64,000 nt of DNA, taken from positions 2,852,001-2,916,000 of the forward strand of contig NZ_CP114013.1 of assembly GCF_028416635.1 (NCBI RefSeq), written 5' to 3'. The position numbers and the translations under genes were made by a program. Under the pieces are notes generated by a model. That model did no database searches. It was not told the origin of the DNA and worked only from the letters and a program-made list of their open reading frames with translations. Shown piece after piece: positions 41,980 to 55,615 of this stretch. How positions within the stretch are numbered: position 1 is the stretch's first letter; each line of letters opens with the position of its first letter. The stretch is from Baekduia alba (GTDB lineage Bacteria; Actinomycetota; Thermoleophilia; Solirubrobacterales; Solirubrobacteraceae).

Positions 41980-43278
41980 TCACACCGAGAATCGCTGGTA
42001 GCGCTCCGCCACCGCGGCCGGGAGCCGCGCGACGACGTGGACGCCCTCGGCGGTGTCCTCGCGATGGAGGTCGCCGGCCACGTCGTGCAGCTCGGCCAGG
42101 CGGCCGCCCTCGGAGTAGGGCAGCAGCAGCTCGACGGACTGCAGCGTCCGCGCGAAGGCGTGCTCGATCGCCTCCTCCAGCGCCGGCACCCCTTCGCCGG
42201 TCAGCGCGCTCACCTGCACGCCGTCGGGATGGCGGTGGCCGAGCTCCAGGCGCTGCTCGGCGTCGAGCTGGTCGACCTTGTTGACCACCAGCAGCCGCGG
42301 GCGGTCGCCGGCGCCGATCTCCTCCAGCGTGTCCTCGACCGCGCGCAGCATCTCCATGCGGTCGTCCTCCTCGGCCGAGCCGTCGACGACGTGGAGGATC
42401 AGGTCGGCGAGGCGCGTCTCCTCCAGCGTCGCGCCGAACGCGTCGACCAGCTGGTGGGGCAGCTTGCGGATGAAGCCGACGGTGTCGGTCAGCAGGTACG
42501 GGCGCCCGTCGATCGACAGCTGGCGCGTCGTCGGGTCCAAGGTGTGGAACAACCGGTTGCGCACGCCGACCTCGCTGCCGGTCATCGCGTTCAACAGCGT
42601 GGACTTGCCCGCGTTGGTGTAGCCGGCCAGCGCGACCTGCGGCAGGTGCGCCCGCTCGCGCTCGGCGCGCTGCACCGCGCGCGTGCCCTTGACGTGCTCC
42701 AGCCGGCGCCGCAGCGCCGCGATGCGGTCGCGCGCCAGCCGGCGGTCGGTCTCGATCTGCGACTCGCCGGGACCGCGCGTCGCGAAGCCGCCGCTGGAGA
42801 CGCCGCCGAGGCGCTCGAGGTGCGTCCACAGCCCGCGCATGCGGGCCAGGTTGTACTCCAGCTGCGCGAGCTCGACCTGGAGCTTGCCCTCGGCCGTGTT
42901 GGCGTGGGCGGCGAAGATGTCGAGGATCGTCGCGGTGCGGTCGACGACGCTGATCCCGAGGTCCTTCTCGAGGTTGCGCTCCTGGCGCGGCGACAGCTCG
43001 TCGTCGCAGACGACGACGTTGGCGTCGGCGGCCTTGGCGGCGACCTTGACCTCCTCGAGCTTGCCCGGCCCCAGGTAGGTGTTGGGGTGCGGCTTGTCGC
43101 GGTGCTGGACGGCCTGGCCGACGACGGCGACGCCGGCGGTGCGCAGAAGCTCGCGCAGCTCGCGGAGGTCGTCGCCCGTCTCGAGGGCGGCGATGAGGTA
43201 CGCGCGCTGCTTGGCCTTGCCTTCCGGCGTTGTGCCATTGCGCGTCGGGGTGTGGCGTCCGTTGCGACCGCGTTCCAT
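41980..43278 (-). CDS. hflX: Ribosome-associated GTPase HflX
   Basis: 432 residues. The N-terminal HflX domain has HPNTYLGPGKLEEVK and the family motif TRGPGESQIETDRR; a coiled-coil linker follows. The G domain has G1 GYTNAGKSTLLNAM, G2 LFHTLDPTTR, G3 DTVGFIRKLP and G4 VVNKVD. HflX splits stalled or 100S ribosomes under stress. In actinobacteria it lies near miaA/dapF, as here. The ATG was chosen because it gives a basic leader leading into the conserved domain. Confidence 0.95.
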   Translation of the reverse strand: MERGRNGRHTPTRNGTTPEGKAKQRAYLIAALETGDDLRELRELLRTAGVAVVGQAVQHRDKPHPNTYLGPGKLEEVKVAAKAADANVVVCDDELSPRQERNLEKDLGISVVDRTATILDIFAAHANTAEGKLQVELAQLEYNLARMRGLWTHLERLGGVSSGGFATRGPGESQIETDRRLARDRIAALRRRLEHVKGTRAVQRAERERAHLPQVALAGYTNAGKSTLLNAMTGSEVGVRNRLFHTLDPTTRQLSIDGRPYLLTDTVGFIRKLPHQLVDAFGATLEETRLADLILHVVDGSAEEDDRMEMLRAVEDTLEEIGAGDRPRLLVVNKVDQLDAEQRLELGHRHPDGVQVSALTGEGVPALEEAIEHAFARTLQSVELLLPYSEGGRLAELHDVAGDLHREDTAEGVHVVARLPAAVAERYQRFSV

Positions 43279-43326
43279 GTGCCTATTGAGTCTAGGAGCT
43301 GGGGAGCCGAACAACAGGATTCCGAT

Positions 43327-44754: not shown

Positions 44755-45804
44755 ATGTCCGCCGATCGCCTCGGAGCGCGGGTGCTGGAGATCGTCAACG
44801 TCGCGTCGGAGTCGCGCGACGAGGCGGCGCTGGCCGCGCACGTCCTCGCCGCGCTGGCGCCCGTGGGCGCGCGCGACGCGGGCGACACCTGCGTGCTCGC
44901 GGGCGTGACCGCGCGCCGCGACCGGCCGCTCGTGCTGTTCGCCGGCCACCTGGACACCGTCCCGGCGCAGGGCAACTTCCCGGGACGCCTCCAGGACGGC
45001 GTCGTGCACGGCCTCGGCAGCGCCGACATGAAGGCCGGCGTCGGGGTGATGATGGAGCTCGCCCTGGCGCTGCCGGCCGACGCGACGGTCGACGTCGGGT
45101 TCGTCTTCTTCGGCCGCGAGGAGCTGCCGTTCGGGGACTCCTCGCTCACGCCGCTGCTCGCGCGCGAGCCCGGCCTCACGACCGCCGACCTGGTCGTCGT
45201 GATGGAGCCGACCGACAACGAGCTGCACGCCGGCTGCGTCGGCAACATCAACGCGACGTGGACCTTCCGCGGCGTCGCCGGCCACAGCGCCCGGCCGTGG
45301 CTGGCCGACAACGCGATCCACCGCGCCGGCCGCGGGATCGCCGAGCTGGCGGCGCTGGAGCCGGTCGACCACGCGTTCGCGGGCCTGACGTTCCGCGAGG
45401 TGATCTCCGCCGTGACCGTCCATGGTGGCGTCGCCCGCAACGTGGTCCCGGACACCTGCGTCGTCGAGATCAACATGCGCTACGCGCCCGGTACGTCGGC
45501 CGCGGAAGCGGAGGCGAGGCTGCGCGCGCTGTGCGAGCCGCACGGCGAGCTGCGCATCGACGGCAACGCGCCGTCGGGCGCGGTGGCGACCGGTCCGCTC
45601 ATCGACCGCCTCGCCGCCGCCGGTTCGCTGGCGCTGGCCCCCAAGCAGGCGTGGACGCCCGTCGCGGAGCTCGCCGCGGCCGGGGTCGACGCCATCAACT
45701 TCGGCCCCGGCAAGCCGCTCTACGCCCACCGCCGCGACGAGCAGGTCGCGGTGGAGGCCCTGGTCAAGTCCTACGACACGCTCGTGAGGTTCCTGTGCGC
45801 CTGA
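44755..45804 (+). CDS. dapE: Succinyl-diaminopimelate desuccinylase
   Basis: 349 residues of the M20 peptidase family: metal ligands His in FAGHLDTVPAQG, Asp in GLGSADMKAGV and Glu in FFGREELPFGDSSL; the dimerisation domain begins ATWTFRGVAGHSARPWLADN. It hydrolyses N-succinyl-LL-DAP to LL-DAP and succinate in the succinylase lysine pathway. It overlaps dapC and converges with dapD, so the pathway genes lie together. Confidence 0.93.
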   Translation: MSADRLGARVLEIVNVASESRDEAALAAHVLAALAPVGARDAGDTCVLAGVTARRDRPLVLFAGHLDTVPAQGNFPGRLQDGVVHGLGSADMKAGVGVMMELALALPADATVDVGFVFFGREELPFGDSSLTPLLAREPGLTTADLVVVMEPTDNELHAGCVGNINATWTFRGVAGHSARPWLADNAIHRAGRGIAELAALEPVDHAFAGLTFREVISAVTVHGGVARNVVPDTCVVEINMRYAPGTSAAEAEARLRALCEPHGELRIDGNAPSGAVATGPLIDRLAAAGSLALAPKQAWTPVAELAAAGVDAINFGPGKPLYAHRRDEQVAVEALVKSYDTLVRFLCA

Positions 45805-46925
45805 ACCCGGTCCTGGAGTCGCTGGGCACGTACCCGTTCGTCCGCCTCGACGAGGCCAAGGCGGCGGCGGTCGCGCGCGGGATCGAGCTGATCGACTTCG
45901 GGATCGGCGAGCCGCGCGAGGAGACCGCGCCGTTCATTCGGGCGGCGCTGGCCGACGCGCTGGACCCCGTGTCGACCTACCCGAAGGCGGTCGGCCTGCC
46001 GGCGCTGCGCGCGGCGGTCGCGCGCTGGGTGGCCCGGCGCTACGGCGCCGACCTCGATCCCGACACGCAGGTGCTCCCGACGCTGGGGTCCAAGGAGGTC
46101 ATCTTCTCGATGGCCCAGGTCGTCGGCGGCGAGGCCGTCGGCGTGACGACGCCGGGCTATCCGGTCGCCGCCCGCGGTGCGCTGTTCGCGGGGCGCGAGG
46201 TCGTCGAGATCCCGCTCGACCCGGCGGCGGGCTTCCTGCCCGATCTCGACGCGCTCGACCCCGGCACGCTGTCGCGGCTGGGGCTGCTGTGGCTCAACTT
46301 CCCCAACAACCCGACCGGCGCGACCGTGCCGCCGGCGGTGCTGGAGCGCGCCGCCGCGCTGGCGCGCGAGCACGACTTCGTCCTGGCCTGCGACGAGGCC
46401 TACTCCGAGCTCTGGTTCTCCGGCGATCCCCCGGCCAGCGCGCTGCAGCTGGGCGACCTGACCAACGTGGTGGTGTTGAACACGCTGTCCAAGCGCTCGT
46501 CGATGCCCGGCTACCGCTCCGGGTTCGTGGCCGGCGACCCGCAGCTCATCGCCGCGCTGAAGAAGTACCGGCCCAACGTCGGCGTCGCGCCGCAGGAGTT
46601 CGTCCAGCGCGCGTCGATCGCGGCGTGGGACGACGAGCAGCACGTCGAGGCCGTCCGGGCGCGCTACCGCCGCAAGCGCGACCTGCTCTGGCCCGCGCTC
46701 CAGGACGCGGGCTTCCGCGACGCCGGCGGCCCGGCGTCGTTCTTCCTGTGGTTGGCCACGCCCGAGGGCGAGGACGACGAGGCCTGCGCGGTCCGCCTGC
46801 TCGAGCACGGCGTCGTCTGCGCGCCCGGCGCGTTCTTCGGCGCCGGCGGCGCGGGACACGTGCGCTTCGCGCTGGTCCCGACGCCGGAGGCCTGCGAGGC
46901 CGCGGCGCACCGCTTGCGCCGCTGA
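45795..46925 (+). CDS. dapC: Succinyldiaminopimelate transaminase
   Basis: A 376-residue class I/II PLP aminotransferase. It has LIDFGIGEPREETAPFIR, LPTLGSKEVIFSMAQ, LWLNFPNNPTGATVPP, CDEAYSELWF and the PLP-binding Lys in TLSKRSSMPGYRSGF. It matches actinobacterial DapC and acts with glutamate on N-succinyl-2-amino-6-ketopimelate. The GTG start lies within the dapE end (10-bp overlap). Confidence 0.9.
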   Translation: MRLNPVLESLGTYPFVRLDEAKAAAVARGIELIDFGIGEPREETAPFIRAALADALDPVSTYPKAVGLPALRAAVARWVARRYGADLDPDTQVLPTLGSKEVIFSMAQVVGGEAVGVTTPGYPVAARGALFAGREVVEIPLDPAAGFLPDLDALDPGTLSRLGLLWLNFPNNPTGATVPPAVLERAAALAREHDFVLACDEAYSELWFSGDPPASALQLGDLTNVVVLNTLSKRSSMPGYRSGFVAGDPQLIAALKKYRPNVGVAPQEFVQRASIAAWDDEQHVEAVRARYRRKRDLLWPALQDAGFRDAGGPASFFLWLATPEGEDDEACAVRLLEHGVVCAPGAFFGAGGAGHVRFALVPTPEACEAAAHRLRR

Positions 46926-46941: not shown

Positions 46942-47949
46942 CTAGGCGTTGCTGTGCAGCGCGGCGTTCAGGCCGCCCCACGACGTGCCCGCGCGCGGCA
47001 GCACCTCGACCGCGCCGGTCGTCGAGTTGCGGCGGAACAGCAGACTCGACTGGCCGGACAGGTCGCGGGCCTTGACGACCTCGCCCTCGGGCGTGGTCAC
47101 GCGGGTGCCGGCGGTCAGGTAGAGGCCGGCCTCGACGATGCAGTCGTCGCCCAGCGAGATGCCGAGGCCGGCGTTCGCGCCGATCAGCGACCCGGTGCCG
47201 ACCGAGATGATGTCCTTGCCCCCGCCACTCAGCGTGCCCATGATCGATGCGCCGCCGCCGACGTCGCTGCCGTCGCCCACGACGACGCCCTGGCTGACGC
47301 GGCCCTCGACCATCGAGGCGCCGAGCGTGCCGGCGTTGAAGTTCACGAACCCTTCGTGCATGACGGTCGTACCGTCGGCGAGGTGCGCGCCGAGGCGGAC
47401 GCGGCGCGCGTCGGCGACGCGCACGCCGGCCGGCGCGACGTAGTCGGTCATCTGCGGGAACTTGTCGACCGAGGTGACGGTCAGCGGGCGGTCCAGCGCG
47501 CGGGCGCGCAGGCGGGCCTCGTCGAGGTGCGCGGGGTCGACCGGGCCGCGGTTGGTCCACGCGACGTTCGGCAGCACGCCGAAGATGCCGTCCAAGTTGA
47601 TGGTGTTGGGCTGCGCGAGGCGGTGGCTGAGCAGATGCAGGCGCAGGTAGGCGTCGTGCGTGTCGGCCGGCGGCGCGGCGAGGTCCTCGACGACGGTCAG
47701 GACCGGCACGACCGTCACGCTGCGCAGGTCGTCGGCGCCGACCGCGCCGGCGAAGGCGCCGCCGCCCAGGTCGGTGGCCTCGGCGGTCCGCAGCGTGCGC
47801 GTCCCGGGGGCGGCCCCGGCGGGGGCGCCGTCCAGACCGAGGTGCGGCGCGACGTAGAACGTGTCGAGCACCTTGCCGTCGGGCACGGTCGTGGTGGCCA
47901 GGCCGACGGCCCACGCGGGCCCGGAGATGCGCTGCTGCGGGTCGGTCAT
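46942..47949 (-). CDS. dapD: Tetrahydrodipicolinate N-succinyltransferase (actinobacterial type)
   Basis: 335 residues. The C-terminal half is a left-handed beta-helix built of hexapeptide repeats ([46 protein letters not shown]-like [33 protein letters not shown]). The N-terminal part has the actinobacterial DapD signature [15 protein letters not shown]. It adds succinate from succinyl-CoA to THDP. It is co-directional with dapF and miaA, at 15 bp from dapF. Confidence 0.94.
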
Positions 47950-47964
47950 CGCCCGAGACGATAG

Positions 47965-48819
47965 TCAGGCCAGCGCGGCGAGGTCGTCCAGCAGCGCGCC
48001 GCTGGCCTCGCCCGCGTAGACGGGCACGGCCCAGCCGGTGAGCGTGAACAGGAGGCTCTCGTCGACGTCGACGACCAGCTCGCCGCCGTCCAGCAAGACC
48101 GTCACCGGCGCGTCCCCGCCGCGCAGCACGTGGGCGATCGCGGCGCCCGACGCGCCGGTGCCCGACGCGCTCGTCTCCCCCACCCCGCGCTCGAAGATTC
48201 GGGCGCGGACGCGGTCCGGCGCGAGCGCGCGGAAGAACGACACGTTGGTCCGGTTCGGGAACGCGGCGTGGTGCTCGATCCCCGGTCCGATCGCGGCGAG
48301 GTCGAGCGCCTCGAGCGCGTCGAGGTCCGGGACGTGGATCGCGCACTGCGGGTTGCCGACCTGGAGGTGCTGGAAGTCCCAGACGCGGCCGTCAGGCGTC
48401 GTGAGCTGGCCGCGGCCGTCGTCGGCCCCGCCGGGGTAGTCGTCGGAGCGCAGGCGCGCGCGCCCCATGTCCAGCGTGCAGGTGCGGTCGTCGTGGATCG
48501 TCGGTCGGATCTCGCCCGCGGCGGTCTGGATCGAGAACTGCCGCTGGTCGGTCCAGCCGTGCGCGCGGAGGTACATCACGGCCTCGCGCGCGCCGTTGCC
48601 CGACAGCTCGGCCTCGGAGCCGTCCGGGTTGAAGATGCGCAGCCGCGCGACGAAGCCGGACGCGTCGGGTGGCGACAGCTCCAGGACGCCGTCGCCGCCG
48701 ATGCCGAGGTGGTAGTCGCAGATCCGCGCGACGCGGGCGGGCGTCAGCGCGAACGGCAAGGTGTCGCGCTCGACGATGATGTAGTCGTTGCCCAGCGCCT
48801 GCCACTTCTCGAAGTGCAT
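47965..48819 (-). CDS. dapF: Diaminopimelate epimerase homologue lacking both catalytic cysteines
   Basis: 284 residues with the DapF two-lobed fold: FEKWQALGNDYIIVE, RIFNPDGSEAELSGNGAR, HLQVGNPQCAIHVPDLD, FPNRTNVSFF and IFERGVGETSASGTGASGAA. In characterised DapF, the residues after GNGAR and in GETxxCGxGA are the two catalytic Cys. Here they are Glu79 (GNGAREA) and Ser219 (SASGTGA). The gene position beside dapD and miaA supports a DAP role, but the usual two-thiol mechanism is impossible. See findings. Confidence 0.85.
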   Translation of the reverse strand: MHFEKWQALGNDYIIVERDTLPFALTPARVARICDYHLGIGGDGVLELSPPDASGFVARLRIFNPDGSEAELSGNGAREAVMYLRAHGWTDQRQFSIQTAAGEIRPTIHDDRTCTLDMGRARLRSDDYPGGADDGRGQLTTPDGRVWDFQHLQVGNPQCAIHVPDLDALEALDLAAIGPGIEHHAAFPNRTNVSFFRALAPDRVRARIFERGVGETSASGTGASGAAIAHVLRGGDAPVTVLLDGGELVVDVDESLLFTLTGWAVPVYAGEASGALLDDLAALA

Positions 48820-48831
48820 CGGCGGGCGAGG

Positions 48832-49734
<903 letters not shown>

Positions 49735-49787
49735 CGCGCCACAGTGTGCCGCGCCGCGATCGTGCGCGGCATGACAGAGTGCGCACC

Positions 49788-50579
49788 ATGGAACTCCGAG
49801 GTTCATCTGTCCTGCTGACGGGCGCGACCGGCGGCATCGGCCACGCGATCGCCCGTGCGCTGCACGGCGAGGGCGCGTCGCTGCTGCTCACCGGCCGGCG
49901 CGTCGACGTCCTGGAGCCGCTGGCGGCCGAGGTCGGCGGCCGGGCCAGCGCGGTAGACCTGTCGAACCGGGCGGCGGTCGACGCGCTGCTGGACGCGGCC
50001 GCCGACGTCGACGTGATGGTCGCCAACGCGGCGCTGCCGGCGTCCGGCGACGTGCTGGCGTTCAGCGTCGACCAGATCGACCGCGCGCTGGAGGTCAACC
50101 TCCGCGCGCCGGTGATCATGTCGCGCGTGCTGGGCGAGCGGATGGCGGCGCGCGGCCGCGGCCACATCGTCCTGATCTCGTCGCTGAGCGGGAAGTCCGG
50201 CCAGGCGCAGAGCGCGATCTACAGCGCGACGAAGTTCGGCCTGCGCGGCTTCGGCCAGGGCCTGCGCGGCGATCTCGGCCCGCGCGGCGTCGGCGTCAGC
50301 GTCGTCTTCCCGGGCTTCATCCGCGACGCCGGCATGTTCCACGAGTCGGGCGCGAAGCTCCCCAAGGGCGTCGGGACCTCGACGCCGGACCAGGTCGCCG
50401 CCGCCGTCATCCGCGCGATCACCGCCGACAAGGGCGAGATCGACGTCGCGCCCGTCGGGATGCGCGCCGGGACCGCGTTCGCGCAGATCGCGCCGGAGAT
50501 CTCGGCGAAGGTCGCCAAGCGCCTCGGCGGAGACAAGGTCGCGGCGCAGCTCGCCGACGGCCAGGCGGACAAGCGCTAG
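49788..50579 (+). CDS. Short-chain dehydrogenase/reductase
   Basis: 263 residues: LLTGATGGIGHAIARAL, the NAA motif in VANAALPASG, ISSLSGKSGQ with catalytic Ser and YSATKFGLRGF (YxxxK). It has an unusually long C-terminal tail of about 55 residues after the fold core, with VAPVGMRAGTAFAQIAPEIS, as in the DltE-like SDR subfamily. The substrate is not known. It is divergent from miaA. Confidence 0.88.
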   Translation: MELRGSSVLLTGATGGIGHAIARALHGEGASLLLTGRRVDVLEPLAAEVGGRASAVDLSNRAAVDALLDAAADVDVMVANAALPASGDVLAFSVDQIDRALEVNLRAPVIMSRVLGERMAARGRGHIVLISSLSGKSGQAQSAIYSATKFGLRGFGQGLRGDLGPRGVGVSVVFPGFIRDAGMFHESGAKLPKGVGTSTPDQVAAAVIRAITADKGEIDVAPVGMRAGTAFAQIAPEISAKVAKRLGGDKVAAQLADGQADKR

Positions 50580-53580: not shown

Positions 53581-55581
53581 CTAGAAGAGCGCCTCCTGCA
53601 CCGCGCCGGGCGGCCCGGGGCGACGGCGGTCGTCGCGGCCGGCGCTCTCACCGCGCGGGCCCATCTGCCGCCGAAACGCGCGCTCGAACGGGCGCTCGTC
53701 GGCGGGATCGCGGCGGAACGGCCGGCGCTCCGGCGCCCCCGCGTCGCGCAGCAGCCGCGCGATCCGGTCGCGCTCCGGCTGCGGCAGGTAGGCGCCGCGC
53801 GCGTAGAGCTCCTCGTACCGATCGACGAGGTCCGGCCGGTAGGCGCGCAGCCACTCCATGAACACGCCGCGGACCTCCCCGCGCAGGTGCAGCCCGATCC
53901 CGCCGATCGCCGTCGCGCCCGCGTCGATCGCGGTCTGGATGATCTCCTCGACCTGCTTGGGATCGTCGTTGATCCCCGGCATGAGCGGCGCGACGAGGAT
54001 GCCCGTCGGGATGCCGGCCCGGTTGAGCTCGGCGACCGCCTCGAGCCGCGCGCGCGGGTTGGGCGTGTGCGGCTCGGTCGCGCGCCACGCCTTCTCGTCG
54101 ATCGTCGGGATCGACAGGTTCGCGCTTACGTCGGTGACCTCGGCGATCTCCTTCAACAACGGCAGGTCGCGCAGCAGCAGCGGTGACTTGGTCAGCACCG
54201 AGCACGGGTTGCGGAAGTCGCGCAGCGCCTCCCAGATCCCGGGCATGAGCTTGTAGCGCCCCTCGACCCACTGGTACGGGTCGGTGTTCGTGCCCATCGC
54301 GATGTGCTCGCCCTTCCACGACGGACGGCGCAGCTCCGCCCGCAGCACCTCGGGCACGTTGACCTTCACGACGATCTCGCGCTCGAAGTCCCTCCCTGCG
54401 TCGAAGTCCAGGTAGGTGTGCGTCGGGCGCGCGAAGCAGTTGTGCGACACCACGCCGTTGGCGATGAAGTCGCCCGTGCCCGTCGTGATGTCATACAACT
54501 CGACTGGCTCGGTCCCCACCGGCTCGATCGCCGCCACGCGCAGCGGCGCGTTGCTCTTGACCGGACGCCCGACGAAGTCCCACTTCGCCGTCGCCGCCGG
54601 CCACGCGAGATGGCAGAACCGCAGCTGCTCGCGCACCCCGCCGCGCACGCGCACGGAGCGGACCCCGACCGCGTCGGCCGCGCCCAGCGCGCTCGCGAAG
54701 CCGAACGAGGCCAGGCACGCCTCGGTCCACGACAGGATCGTGGCGTCCGCGTTGGCGATCCGCAGCTCCTCGCGGTCGATCGCGCCGTCGGCGTCGAACA
54801 CGCCCGCGAGGAAGCCCTTGCGCCAGCCGTCGCCCGGCTCGAACGGCCACGCGATCAGCGACTCGACCCGCTCGGCCCGCGCGAGCGCCGCCATCGTGCG
54901 TCCGCGGCCTCCGTCCTCGATCCCGAACAGCGCGAGGTAGGACACCGCCCGCCCGCGCGCCTCGGGCTCCTGGCCGTCGCCCCGGATCATCCCGCACAGG
55001 TAGCCCCGCCGGTAGGCGTCGGACTCCGCCGGCGGCGCGACGAACCTGCCCGGGCCCAGCAGCGACACCGCGCGCGTGAGGAACGGCCGCGGCGGCCCGG
55101 ACCCCCGTTCCACGTGCTTCCACCCGCGGTCGGTCAGGAACCGGTGGTCGCCGCTGGCCAGCAGCTCCGTCCCGTCTTCCAGCGTGACGCGCAGCGCGGG
55201 CTTGAGGGTCGTCCAATGCGCGCGTACGCGGGTCCGGACGTAGCGCCGCGGGCCGCCGTCGCGCTGCTCGGTCCCGTAGATGTCGTCGCCGACCGCGACG
55301 TCGCGGAGCGCGCGATGCCGCCCGTCGGCCATCAGGATCGGGGTGTCGCCGTCCAGGCAGTACACGCACGCGTGCGAGCAGCCGCGATACGGGTTGATCG
55401 TCCACCGAAACGGCATCCGCGACGCCTCCGGCACCCGGTTGAGCGCGCTCTTGGCGTGGATCTCGTAGAACCGCATGTCCAACGCCTCGGGCGCGTCGAA
55501 CCGCCGCACGGTCGCGGGATCGCGGTAGCCGGGAAGCCGCGCGCCCTCCTCTGCCTCGATCTTCAGGTTGTCCCAACGCAT
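53581..55581 (-). CDS. Intein-containing Rv2578c-type radical SAM protein
   Basis: 666 residues. The host protein starts MRWDNLKIEAEE, has NPYRGCSHACVY | CFARPTHTYLDFDAG (radical SAM CxxxCxxC motif, split by the intein) and later GTNTDPYQWVEGRYKLMP, SVLTKSPLLLRDLPLL and ends ALF like its Mycobacterium homologue. The intein (residues 75-381) splices in just before the third Fe-S Cys, which becomes the C+1 residue. Without splicing no cluster can form. The ATG at 55581 fits the family start; an upstream ATG at 55599 lies inside a LexA box. The reaction is unknown. Confidence 0.92.
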   Translation of the reverse strand: MRWDNLKIEAEEGARLPGYRDPATVRRFDAPEALDMRFYEIHAKSALNRVPEASRMPFRWTINPYRGCSHACVYCLDGDTPILMADGRHRALRDVAVGDDIYGTEQRDGGPRRYVRTRVRAHWTTLKPALRVTLEDGTELLASGDHRFLTDRGWKHVERGSGPPRPFLTRAVSLLGPGRFVAPPAESDAYRRGYLCGMIRGDGQEPEARGRAVSYLALFGIEDGGRGRTMAALARAERVESLIAWPFEPGDGWRKGFLAGVFDADGAIDREELRIANADATILSWTEACLASFGFASALGAADAVGVRSVRVRGGVREQLRFCHLAWPAATAKWDFVGRPVKSNAPLRVAAIEPVGTEPVELYDITTGTGDFIANGVVSHNCFARPTHTYLDFDAGRDFEREIVVKVNVPEVLRAELRRPSWKGEHIAMGTNTDPYQWVEGRYKLMPGIWEALRDFRNPCSVLTKSPLLLRDLPLLKEIAEVTDVSANLSIPTIDEKAWRATEPHTPNPRARLEAVAELNRAGIPTGILVAPLMPGINDDPKQVEEIIQTAIDAGATAIGGIGLHLRGEVRGVFMEWLRAYRPDLVDRYEELYARGAYLPQPERDRIARLLRDAGAPERRPFRRDPADERPFERAFRRQMGPRGESAGRDDRRRPGPPGAVQEALF
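54439..55359 (-). mobile_element. Intein with LAGLIDADG homing endonuclease
   Basis: 307 residues. Splicing block A is CLDGDTPILMADGRHRALRD, block B GDHRFLTDRGW, and the C-terminal blocks F/G are YDITTGTGDFIANGVVSHN, ending His-Asn before C+1. Two DOD-type motifs, YLCGMIRGDG and FLAGVFDADG, each keep the catalytic Asp, so the endonuclease looks intact and the element may be mobile. Confidence 0.93.
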
Positions 55582-55582
55582 G

Positions 55583-55596
55583 CGAACAGATGTTTG
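55583..55596 (-). promoter_or_regulatory. LexA (SOS) box 2
   Basis: CGAACAGATGTTTG fits the actinobacterial/Bacillus consensus CGAACRNRYGTTYG, with the last half-site as GTTTG. It ends two bases before the ATG at 55581, so LexA would occupy the start region. Confidence 0.65.
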
Positions 55597-55615
55597 CATA
55601 ACCGAAGCCGGTATG

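What the first reader, a model, noticed from the sequence alone, without database searches (positions are those of the whole stretch)
47965..48819. DapF homologue with both catalytic cysteines replaced (Glu79 and Ser219)
The DapF fold motifs are intact but the two residues that are Cys in characterised epimerases (Cys73 and Cys217 of E. coli) are Glu and Ser here (GNGAREA and GETSASGTGA). The classical two-thiol epimerisation is therefore not possible. In PhzF, a relative, the first Cys is also a Glu and the second is not Cys, and that enzyme is an isomerase with a single base. The gene sits with dapD and miaA, so it may be a one-base DAP racemase of a new mechanistic class, or a different isomerase in wall synthesis.
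Basis: partly seen in the sequence, partly recalled or inferred. Interest (0 to 1): 0.78.

Follow-up and report, generated by a model that had tools for sequence, protein, structure and literature searches.

The report
Serine-serine DapF lacking catalytic cysteines
The only enzyme this soil bacterium appears to have for making an essential cell-wall building block carries serines where textbook versions need two cysteines; whole groups of bacteria share this change, so the accepted two-cysteine chemistry may not be the only way to do the reaction.

Summary
Window 47965-48819 (minus strand) encodes a full-length DapF (TIGR00652, 191 bits; AlphaFold pLDDT 94; best PDB matches are DapFs). Cys217 aligns with Ser219, as claimed. 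A third catalytic residue, His159, is Gln158. The active site is therefore Ser/Gln/Ser, with every substrate-binding residue kept.

All 54 distinct sequences read from the window's order are Ser/Gln/Ser. Ser/Ser DapFs also fill much of Acidobacteriota and arose separately there (AU p 0.0006 for Ser/Gln/Ser as one clade). Ser/Cys and Cys/Ser intermediates exist. Both Ser codon families occur at each site, so serine itself is under selection.

The genome has no second DapF and no Ddh. It has lysA and a murE with the DNPR motif, and members of this order contain meso-DAP. dapF lies beside dapD/dapC/dapE, or beside dapL in another family of the order. It is most likely the working LL-DAP epimerase, using a Ser/Ser pair. 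Engineered Cys-to-Ser enzymes of this fold keep under 0.1% activity, so how it works is an open, testable question. Activity is not shown.

The parts
47965..48819 (-). dapF (Ser/Gln/Ser type), 284 aa, ATG start
   Evidence: TIGR00652 191 bits over cut-off 114.65; PF01678 147.5 bits; AlphaFold pLDDT 94, pTM 0.90; DapF fold
48601..48603 (-). codon for Ser73 (TCG), column of E. coli catalytic Cys73; model has helix 74-86, so Ser73 is at its N-terminus
   Evidence: alignment; codon; helix
48346..48348 (-). codon for Gln158 (CAG), column of catalytic His159
48190..48192 (-). codon for Glu210, column of Glu208, conserved
48163..48165 (-). codon for Ser219 (TCG), column of E. coli catalytic Cys217; model has helix 220-232
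46942..47949 (-). dapD, tetrahydrodipicolinate N-succinyltransferase, next gene downstream of dapF
   Evidence: TIGR03535 452 bits over cut-off 441.5
45804..46925 (+). probable dapC, succinyldiaminopimelate transaminase
   Evidence: best family TIGR03537 370 bits, below its cut-off of 453.6
44755..45804 (+). dapE, succinyl-diaminopimelate desuccinylase
   Evidence: TIGR01900 335 bits over cut-off 304.2
48832..49806 (-). miaA, directly upstream of dapF
   Evidence: TIGR00174 178.5 bits over cut-off
41980..43296 (-). hflX-type GTPase (extent approximate)
   Evidence: PF13167, PF16360, PF01926 over cut-off

Best explanation
This is the organism's only LL-diaminopimelate epimerase, a true DapF orthologue in which both catalytic cysteines have been replaced by serines and the accessory histidine by glutamine. 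It most likely still interconverts LL-DAP and meso-DAP by 1,1-proton transfer. In this reading one serine takes the alpha-proton and the other delivers one to the opposite face. Each serine sits at the N-terminus of a central helix, where the dipole and backbone amides that stabilise the thiolate in ordinary DapF would stabilise an alkoxide in the closed, desolvated site. Shown here: residue identities, conservation, separate origins, selection for serine at both sites, absence of a second DapF and of Ddh, genome context and fold. From the literature: meso-DAP in this order. Inferred: that it is active, and that the serines themselves are the acid/base pair.
For: Family: TIGR00652 and PF01678 well over cut-off; fold closest to DapF (TM 0.88 to 9mro; Z 33-36 for most DapFs and O-ureidoserine racemase against about 26 for PhzF). 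Substrate residues N11, N64, N75, N157, N190, E208, R209 and G218 (E. coli numbers) are kept. Need for the activity: one PF01678 protein in a single-contig 5.86-Mb genome, lysA present, one full-length murE with the DAP-type DNPR motif. Ddh is absent in 181 of 183 order genomes. [quoted passage not shown] Context: dapF next to dapD/C/E in one family and next to an LL-DAP aminotransferase in another. Selection: both TCN and AGC Ser codons at both sites inside the order, with no other residue at either site. Recurrence: Ser/Ser also in Acidobacteriota, with Ser/His/Cys and Cys/His/Ser intermediates; Ser/Gln/Ser as one clade rejected, p-AU 0.0006. Precedent: a Ser93/Cys 4-hydroxyproline epimerase is active (PMC4113996).
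Against: Cys-to-Ser mutants of DapF-fold racemases keep under 0.1% activity (PMC8225329). A review holds Cys to be favoured because Ser and Thr have higher pKa and are harder to desolvate (PMC8142540). Known Ser or Thr replacements in related enzymes usually affect one side only and can turn an epimerase into a dehydratase. No Ser/Ser enzyme has been assayed in anything I found. In some Actinomycetota a Ser/His/Ser paralogue coexists with a Cys/Cys DapF, so Ser forms are not always the cell's epimerase.
Confidence: 0.62

Rival explanations
1. It is a working DAP epimerase, but the serines are not the bases. They hold water or relay protons, and the real general base is another residue (for example Glu210) or an ordered water, possibly with one base only.
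For: The low acidity of Ser argues for help. Glu208 (window Glu210) is in the listed catalytic set (PMC3581254) and is invariant in all DapFs read.
Against: Glu208 is equally conserved in Cys/Cys enzymes, so it is not a new base. No ionisable residue was gained in parallel in the two Ser lineages. His159, a possible alternative base, is lost in this order.
Confidence: 0.2
2. It no longer epimerises. It is kept as a binding protein (E. coli DapF also binds RppH), and an unidentified enzyme makes meso-DAP.
For: Engineered Ser forms are almost dead; RppH-DapF complexes are known (PDB 6d13).
Against: No second DapF and no Ddh although lysA, murE and meso-DAP walls are present. Substrate residues are strictly kept, Ser is actively maintained at both sites, and the gene stays with LL-DAP-forming genes.
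Confidence: 0.1
3. It is a racemase or isomerase for another amino acid.
For: O-ureidoserine racemase ties with DapF in fold comparison, and a 'DapF' from Fusobacterium proved to be a histidine racemase (PMC11602996).
Against: Scores over the DapF equivalog cut-off; DAP-binding residues intact; neighbours are dapD/C/E or dapL; the cell would then have no DapF.
Confidence: 0.06
4. One reading: Glu79 acts as a single base.
For: Both cysteines are indeed absent.
Against: Glu79 is not in the catalytic column, is replaced by Gln or Ala in order members and by Cys in Acidobacteriota Ser/Ser enzymes, and PhzF matches are weaker.
Confidence: 0.02

Closest known systems
Canonical DapF (EC 5.1.1.7; E. 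coli, H. influenzae, Anabaena, Arabidopsis)
   Same: Full-length alignment at about 30-38% identity, same fold, all DAP-binding residues, Glu208
   Different: Cys73 to Ser, Cys217 to Ser, His159 to Gln; no thiol acid/base pair possible
Ser/Cys 4-hydroxyproline 2-epimerase of the proline racemase superfamily (Agrobacterium vitis, PMC4113996)
   Same: Same wider fold; a natural Ser in the first catalytic position with proven epimerase activity
   Different: Keeps one Cys; other substrate and family
Ser/Thr trans-3-hydroxyproline dehydratase (B9K4G4, PMC4113996)
   Same: No catalytic cysteine at all; catalytic Ser in the first position
   Different: Carries out dehydration, not epimerisation; second position is Thr
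Laboratory C73S and C217S DapF mutants (PDB 2q9h, 2q9j)
   Same: Same substitutions, one at a time; among the closest structures
   Different: Engineered forms with hindered catalysis; the natural enzyme has both, plus His159Gln
PhzF
   Same: Related fold (TM about 0.74)
   Different: No PF02567 match, much lower Z and identity

Membership tests
DapF (diaminopimelate epimerase) | Profile score over the curated DapF cut-off across the full length | tested here: met
   TIGR00652 191 bits, cut-off 114.65, model 1-268 of 270; all 20 members of alignment A1 match
DapF (diaminopimelate epimerase) | DapF fold (two similar domains, catalytic residue at the N-terminus of a helix in each) | tested here: met
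DapF (diaminopimelate epimerase) | DAP-binding residues (N11, N64, N157, N190, E208, R209 and glycines) | tested here: met
DapF (diaminopimelate epimerase) | Two catalytic cysteines (thiol/thiolate pair) | tested here: not met
   Ser73 and Ser219; conserved in all 54 order sequences read. It is therefore filed as a cysteine-less variant, not a classical DapF
DapF (diaminopimelate epimerase) | Catalytic His159 | tested here: not met
   Gln158; also varied among Acidobacteriota Ser/Ser enzymes
DapF (diaminopimelate epimerase) | LL-DAP/meso-DAP epimerase activity | not testable with these tools
   indirect only: sole DapF, no Ddh, meso-DAP in the order
PhzF | PhzF profile match | tested here: not met
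   only PF01678 at E 0.001 or better
PhzF | Catalytic Glu in the PhzF position | not tested
   no PhzF sequence was aligned; Glu79 lies outside the DapF catalytic column
Meso-DAP dehydrogenase (Ddh) as an alternative source | PF16654 protein in the genome | tested here: not met
   absent in the own genome and in 181 of 183 order genomes

The most novel reading that the evidence does not exclude
A cofactor-free amino-acid epimerase that works with a serine/serine proton-transfer pair and no catalytic cysteine or histidine, evolved separately in at least two phyla, and used as the sole source of meso-DAP for wall and lysine in whole orders of soil bacteria.
Probability: 0.45. Interest if true: 0.86.

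Novelty: new variant of a known kind. Interest (0 to 1): 0.72.

Why it matters
DapF is the model for two-thiol, cofactor-free racemases and a studied antibacterial target. Naturally selected Ser/Ser forms would show that thiols are not essential to this chemistry. They offer enzymes in which the pKa problem of alpha-proton removal can be measured, they should be insensitive to thiol-directed reagents, and they call for a check of public annotations that name such proteins DapF without comment. If they prove inactive, large groups of bacteria must have an unknown route to meso-DAP, which would be just as surprising.

Tried and rejected
(1) Glu79 as the replaced catalytic residue: wrong column and not conserved. 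(2) Hidden canonical DapF: none in the own genome; single DapF genes over the cut-off in nine named or related genomes. (3) Ddh bypass: absent here; full-length matches only in G001 and G012 of the order, partial matches in two Cys/Cys Acidobacteriota. (4) Horizontal transfer from Acidobacteriota: the tree, with the three catalytic columns masked, places the window clade inside Thermoleophilia (100*) beside Cys/Cys and Ser/His/Ser relatives; Ser/Gln/Ser as one clade rejected, p-AU 0.0006; all Ser/Ser as one clade only weakly rejected, p-AU 0.031. (5) 'All Acidobacteriota are Ser/Ser': the first sample suggested it, but it was biased by a Ser/Ser query; a second sample found many Cys/Cys. (6) 'His159 is lost only in Ser/Ser backgrounds': two sub-cut-off Cys/Gln/Cys proteins (L257, L258) break the rule. 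(7) A compensating ionisable residue gained in both Ser lineages: none found. (8) Paired-change tests on the tree had too few independent pairs to be significant. (10) Literature searches for a described Ser/Ser DapF found none in the held open-access library; subscription papers are not covered. (11) No paper was found here for wall DAP in Ser/Ser Acidobacteriota.

Full report
WHAT WAS CLAIMED. A DapF homologue at 47965-48819 with both catalytic cysteines replaced, as Glu79 and Ser219, perhaps a one-base DAP racemase.

CHECK OF THE OBSERVATION. The ORF is real, 284 aa, on the minus strand. It scores 191 bits to the DapF equivalog TIGR00652 (cut-off 114.65) and 147.5 bits to PF01678. Alignments to E. 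coli, Acinetobacter, Arabidopsis and Anabaena DapF show that E. coli Cys73 lies before GNGAR, so its counterpart is Ser73. Glu79 is opposite E. coli Cys79, which is not catalytic. Cys217 corresponds to Ser219. The catalytic set given for H. influenzae DapF is Cys73, His159, Glu208, Cys217 (PMC3581254). His159 is Gln158 here and Glu208 is kept (Glu210). The DAP-binding residues N11, N64, N75, N157, N190 and R209 and the glycines are all kept. In an AlphaFold model (pLDDT 94, pTM 0.90) helices run 74-86 and 220-232, so each Ser sits at a helix N-terminus, as the cysteines do in DapF (PMC12039745). The model is closest to DapFs (TM 0.88 to 9mro; Z 33-36 for most, tied with O-ureidoserine racemase) and clearly less close to PhzF (TM about 0.74, Z about 26).

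HOW WIDESPREAD. I call the three-residue state at 73/159/217 SQS here, against CHC in E. coli. In the window's order 220 of 232 genomes hold a match, and all 54 distinct sequences read are SQS. In the rest of the class most families are CHC. Family f8 and one f7 genome are SHS, and four f5 genomes are SHC. Elsewhere in Actinomycetota CHC dominates, with a CHS clade, one SHC, one SHS, and an SHS paralogue (with Gly218 to Ala) in five genomes that also have a CHC DapF. In Acidobacteriota about 90 genomes were read: SHS is the commonest state, then CHC and SQS, with a few SNS, SVS, CHS and CQC. The first Acidobacteriota sample was biased toward Ser/Ser by its query; the second, ranked by the general DapF model, corrected this.

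HISTORY. A tree built with the three columns masked puts the window clade inside Thermoleophilia (100*), with CHC and SHS neighbours, away from the Acidobacteriota Ser/Ser clade. Holding all SQS together is rejected (p-AU 0.0006); holding all Ser/Ser together is weakly rejected (p-AU 0.031). Cys-to-Ser has therefore happened more than once. Support is from a quick tree, and fine branching is uncertain.

SELECTION FOR SERINE. In the order, Ser73 is encoded by TCN (50) and AGC (3), and Ser219 by TCN (45) and AGC (8). No single base change joins these codon families without passing through another residue, yet no order sequence has any other residue at either site. This is expected if serine is needed and not if the sites are free.

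IS THE ACTIVITY NEEDED, AND IS THERE ANOTHER SOURCE? The genome is a single contig of 5.86 Mb (96% complete by estimate) with one PF01678 protein. It has lysA, whose substrate is meso-DAP, and one full-length murE with the DNPR motif of DAP-adding enzymes (motif meaning from general knowledge). Ddh is absent from it and from 181 of 183 order genomes. [quoted passage not shown] Solirubrobacter deserti CPCC 204708 has meso-DAP (PMC10722151), and its only DapF is SQS. In Acidobacteriota the only two genomes with (partial) Ddh matches carry CHC DapFs.

CONTEXT. In the window, dapF is followed by dapD, with dapC and dapE convergent and hflX beyond; miaA precedes it. The same order is seen in relatives of this family. 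In another family of the order the slot after dapF is filled by an LL-DAP aminotransferase (535 and 544 bits to NF006756, cut-off 507), in one case followed by hflX. Two different ways of making LL-DAP thus stand beside the same Ser/Ser dapF, which points to LL-DAP as its substrate.

HOW IT MIGHT WORK. The simplest reading is the ordinary two-sided proton transfer with Ser/Ser in place of Cys/Cys, helped by helix dipoles, backbone amides and a closed dry site. It runs against chemistry: Cys is thought to be favoured because it has a lower pKa and is more easily desolvated (PMC8142540), and engineered Cys-to-Ser enzymes of this fold keep less than 0.1% activity (PMC8225329). Precedent shows that one side can be Ser in an active epimerase (PMC4113996). 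The natural SHC and CHS DapFs look like steps on the way. A search for residues gained in both Ser lineages found no new ionisable group, so no obvious substitute base exists. His loss in the SQS order would fit a His that served mainly to tune Cys73 (inference).

VERDICT. The protein is a DapF by family, fold, binding site and context, but it fails the two-cysteine test. It is filed as a cysteine-less variant of DapF, likely active. Activity and mechanism are unproven. I found no earlier description in the open-access library, which does not cover subscription journals.

Noticed in passing
window 53581-55599 (-): A radical SAM protein (PF04055) whose CxYC region is interrupted by about 270 residues beginning 'CLDGDTPILMADG' and ending 'VVSHN|C': an apparent in-frame intein with weak intein and LAGLIDADG matches.
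   Followed up: partly
L169, L171, L173, L175, L177 (G748, G740, G659, G733, G700): Second DapF-like gene in Actinomycetota that also have a Cys/Cys DapF: Ser/His/Ser with Gly218 to Ala, probably another function.
   Followed up: partly
L040, L044 against the window: Within one order the slot next to dapF switches between the succinylase pathway (dapD, with dapC/dapE) and the aminotransferase pathway (dapL).
   Followed up: partly
L257, L258: Acidobacteriota DapF-like proteins below the DapF cut-off with Cys/Gln/Cys and Asn64 to Asp.
   Followed up: no
L263 (G012), L264 (G001): Two members of the order carry a full-length Ddh C-terminal domain besides their DapF, a possible DapF bypass.
   Followed up: no
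L187, L191, L202, L207; L055, L161, L164, L166, L189: Natural half-way forms: Cys/His/Ser and Ser/His/Cys DapFs, useful for testing each catalytic side apart.
   Followed up: partly
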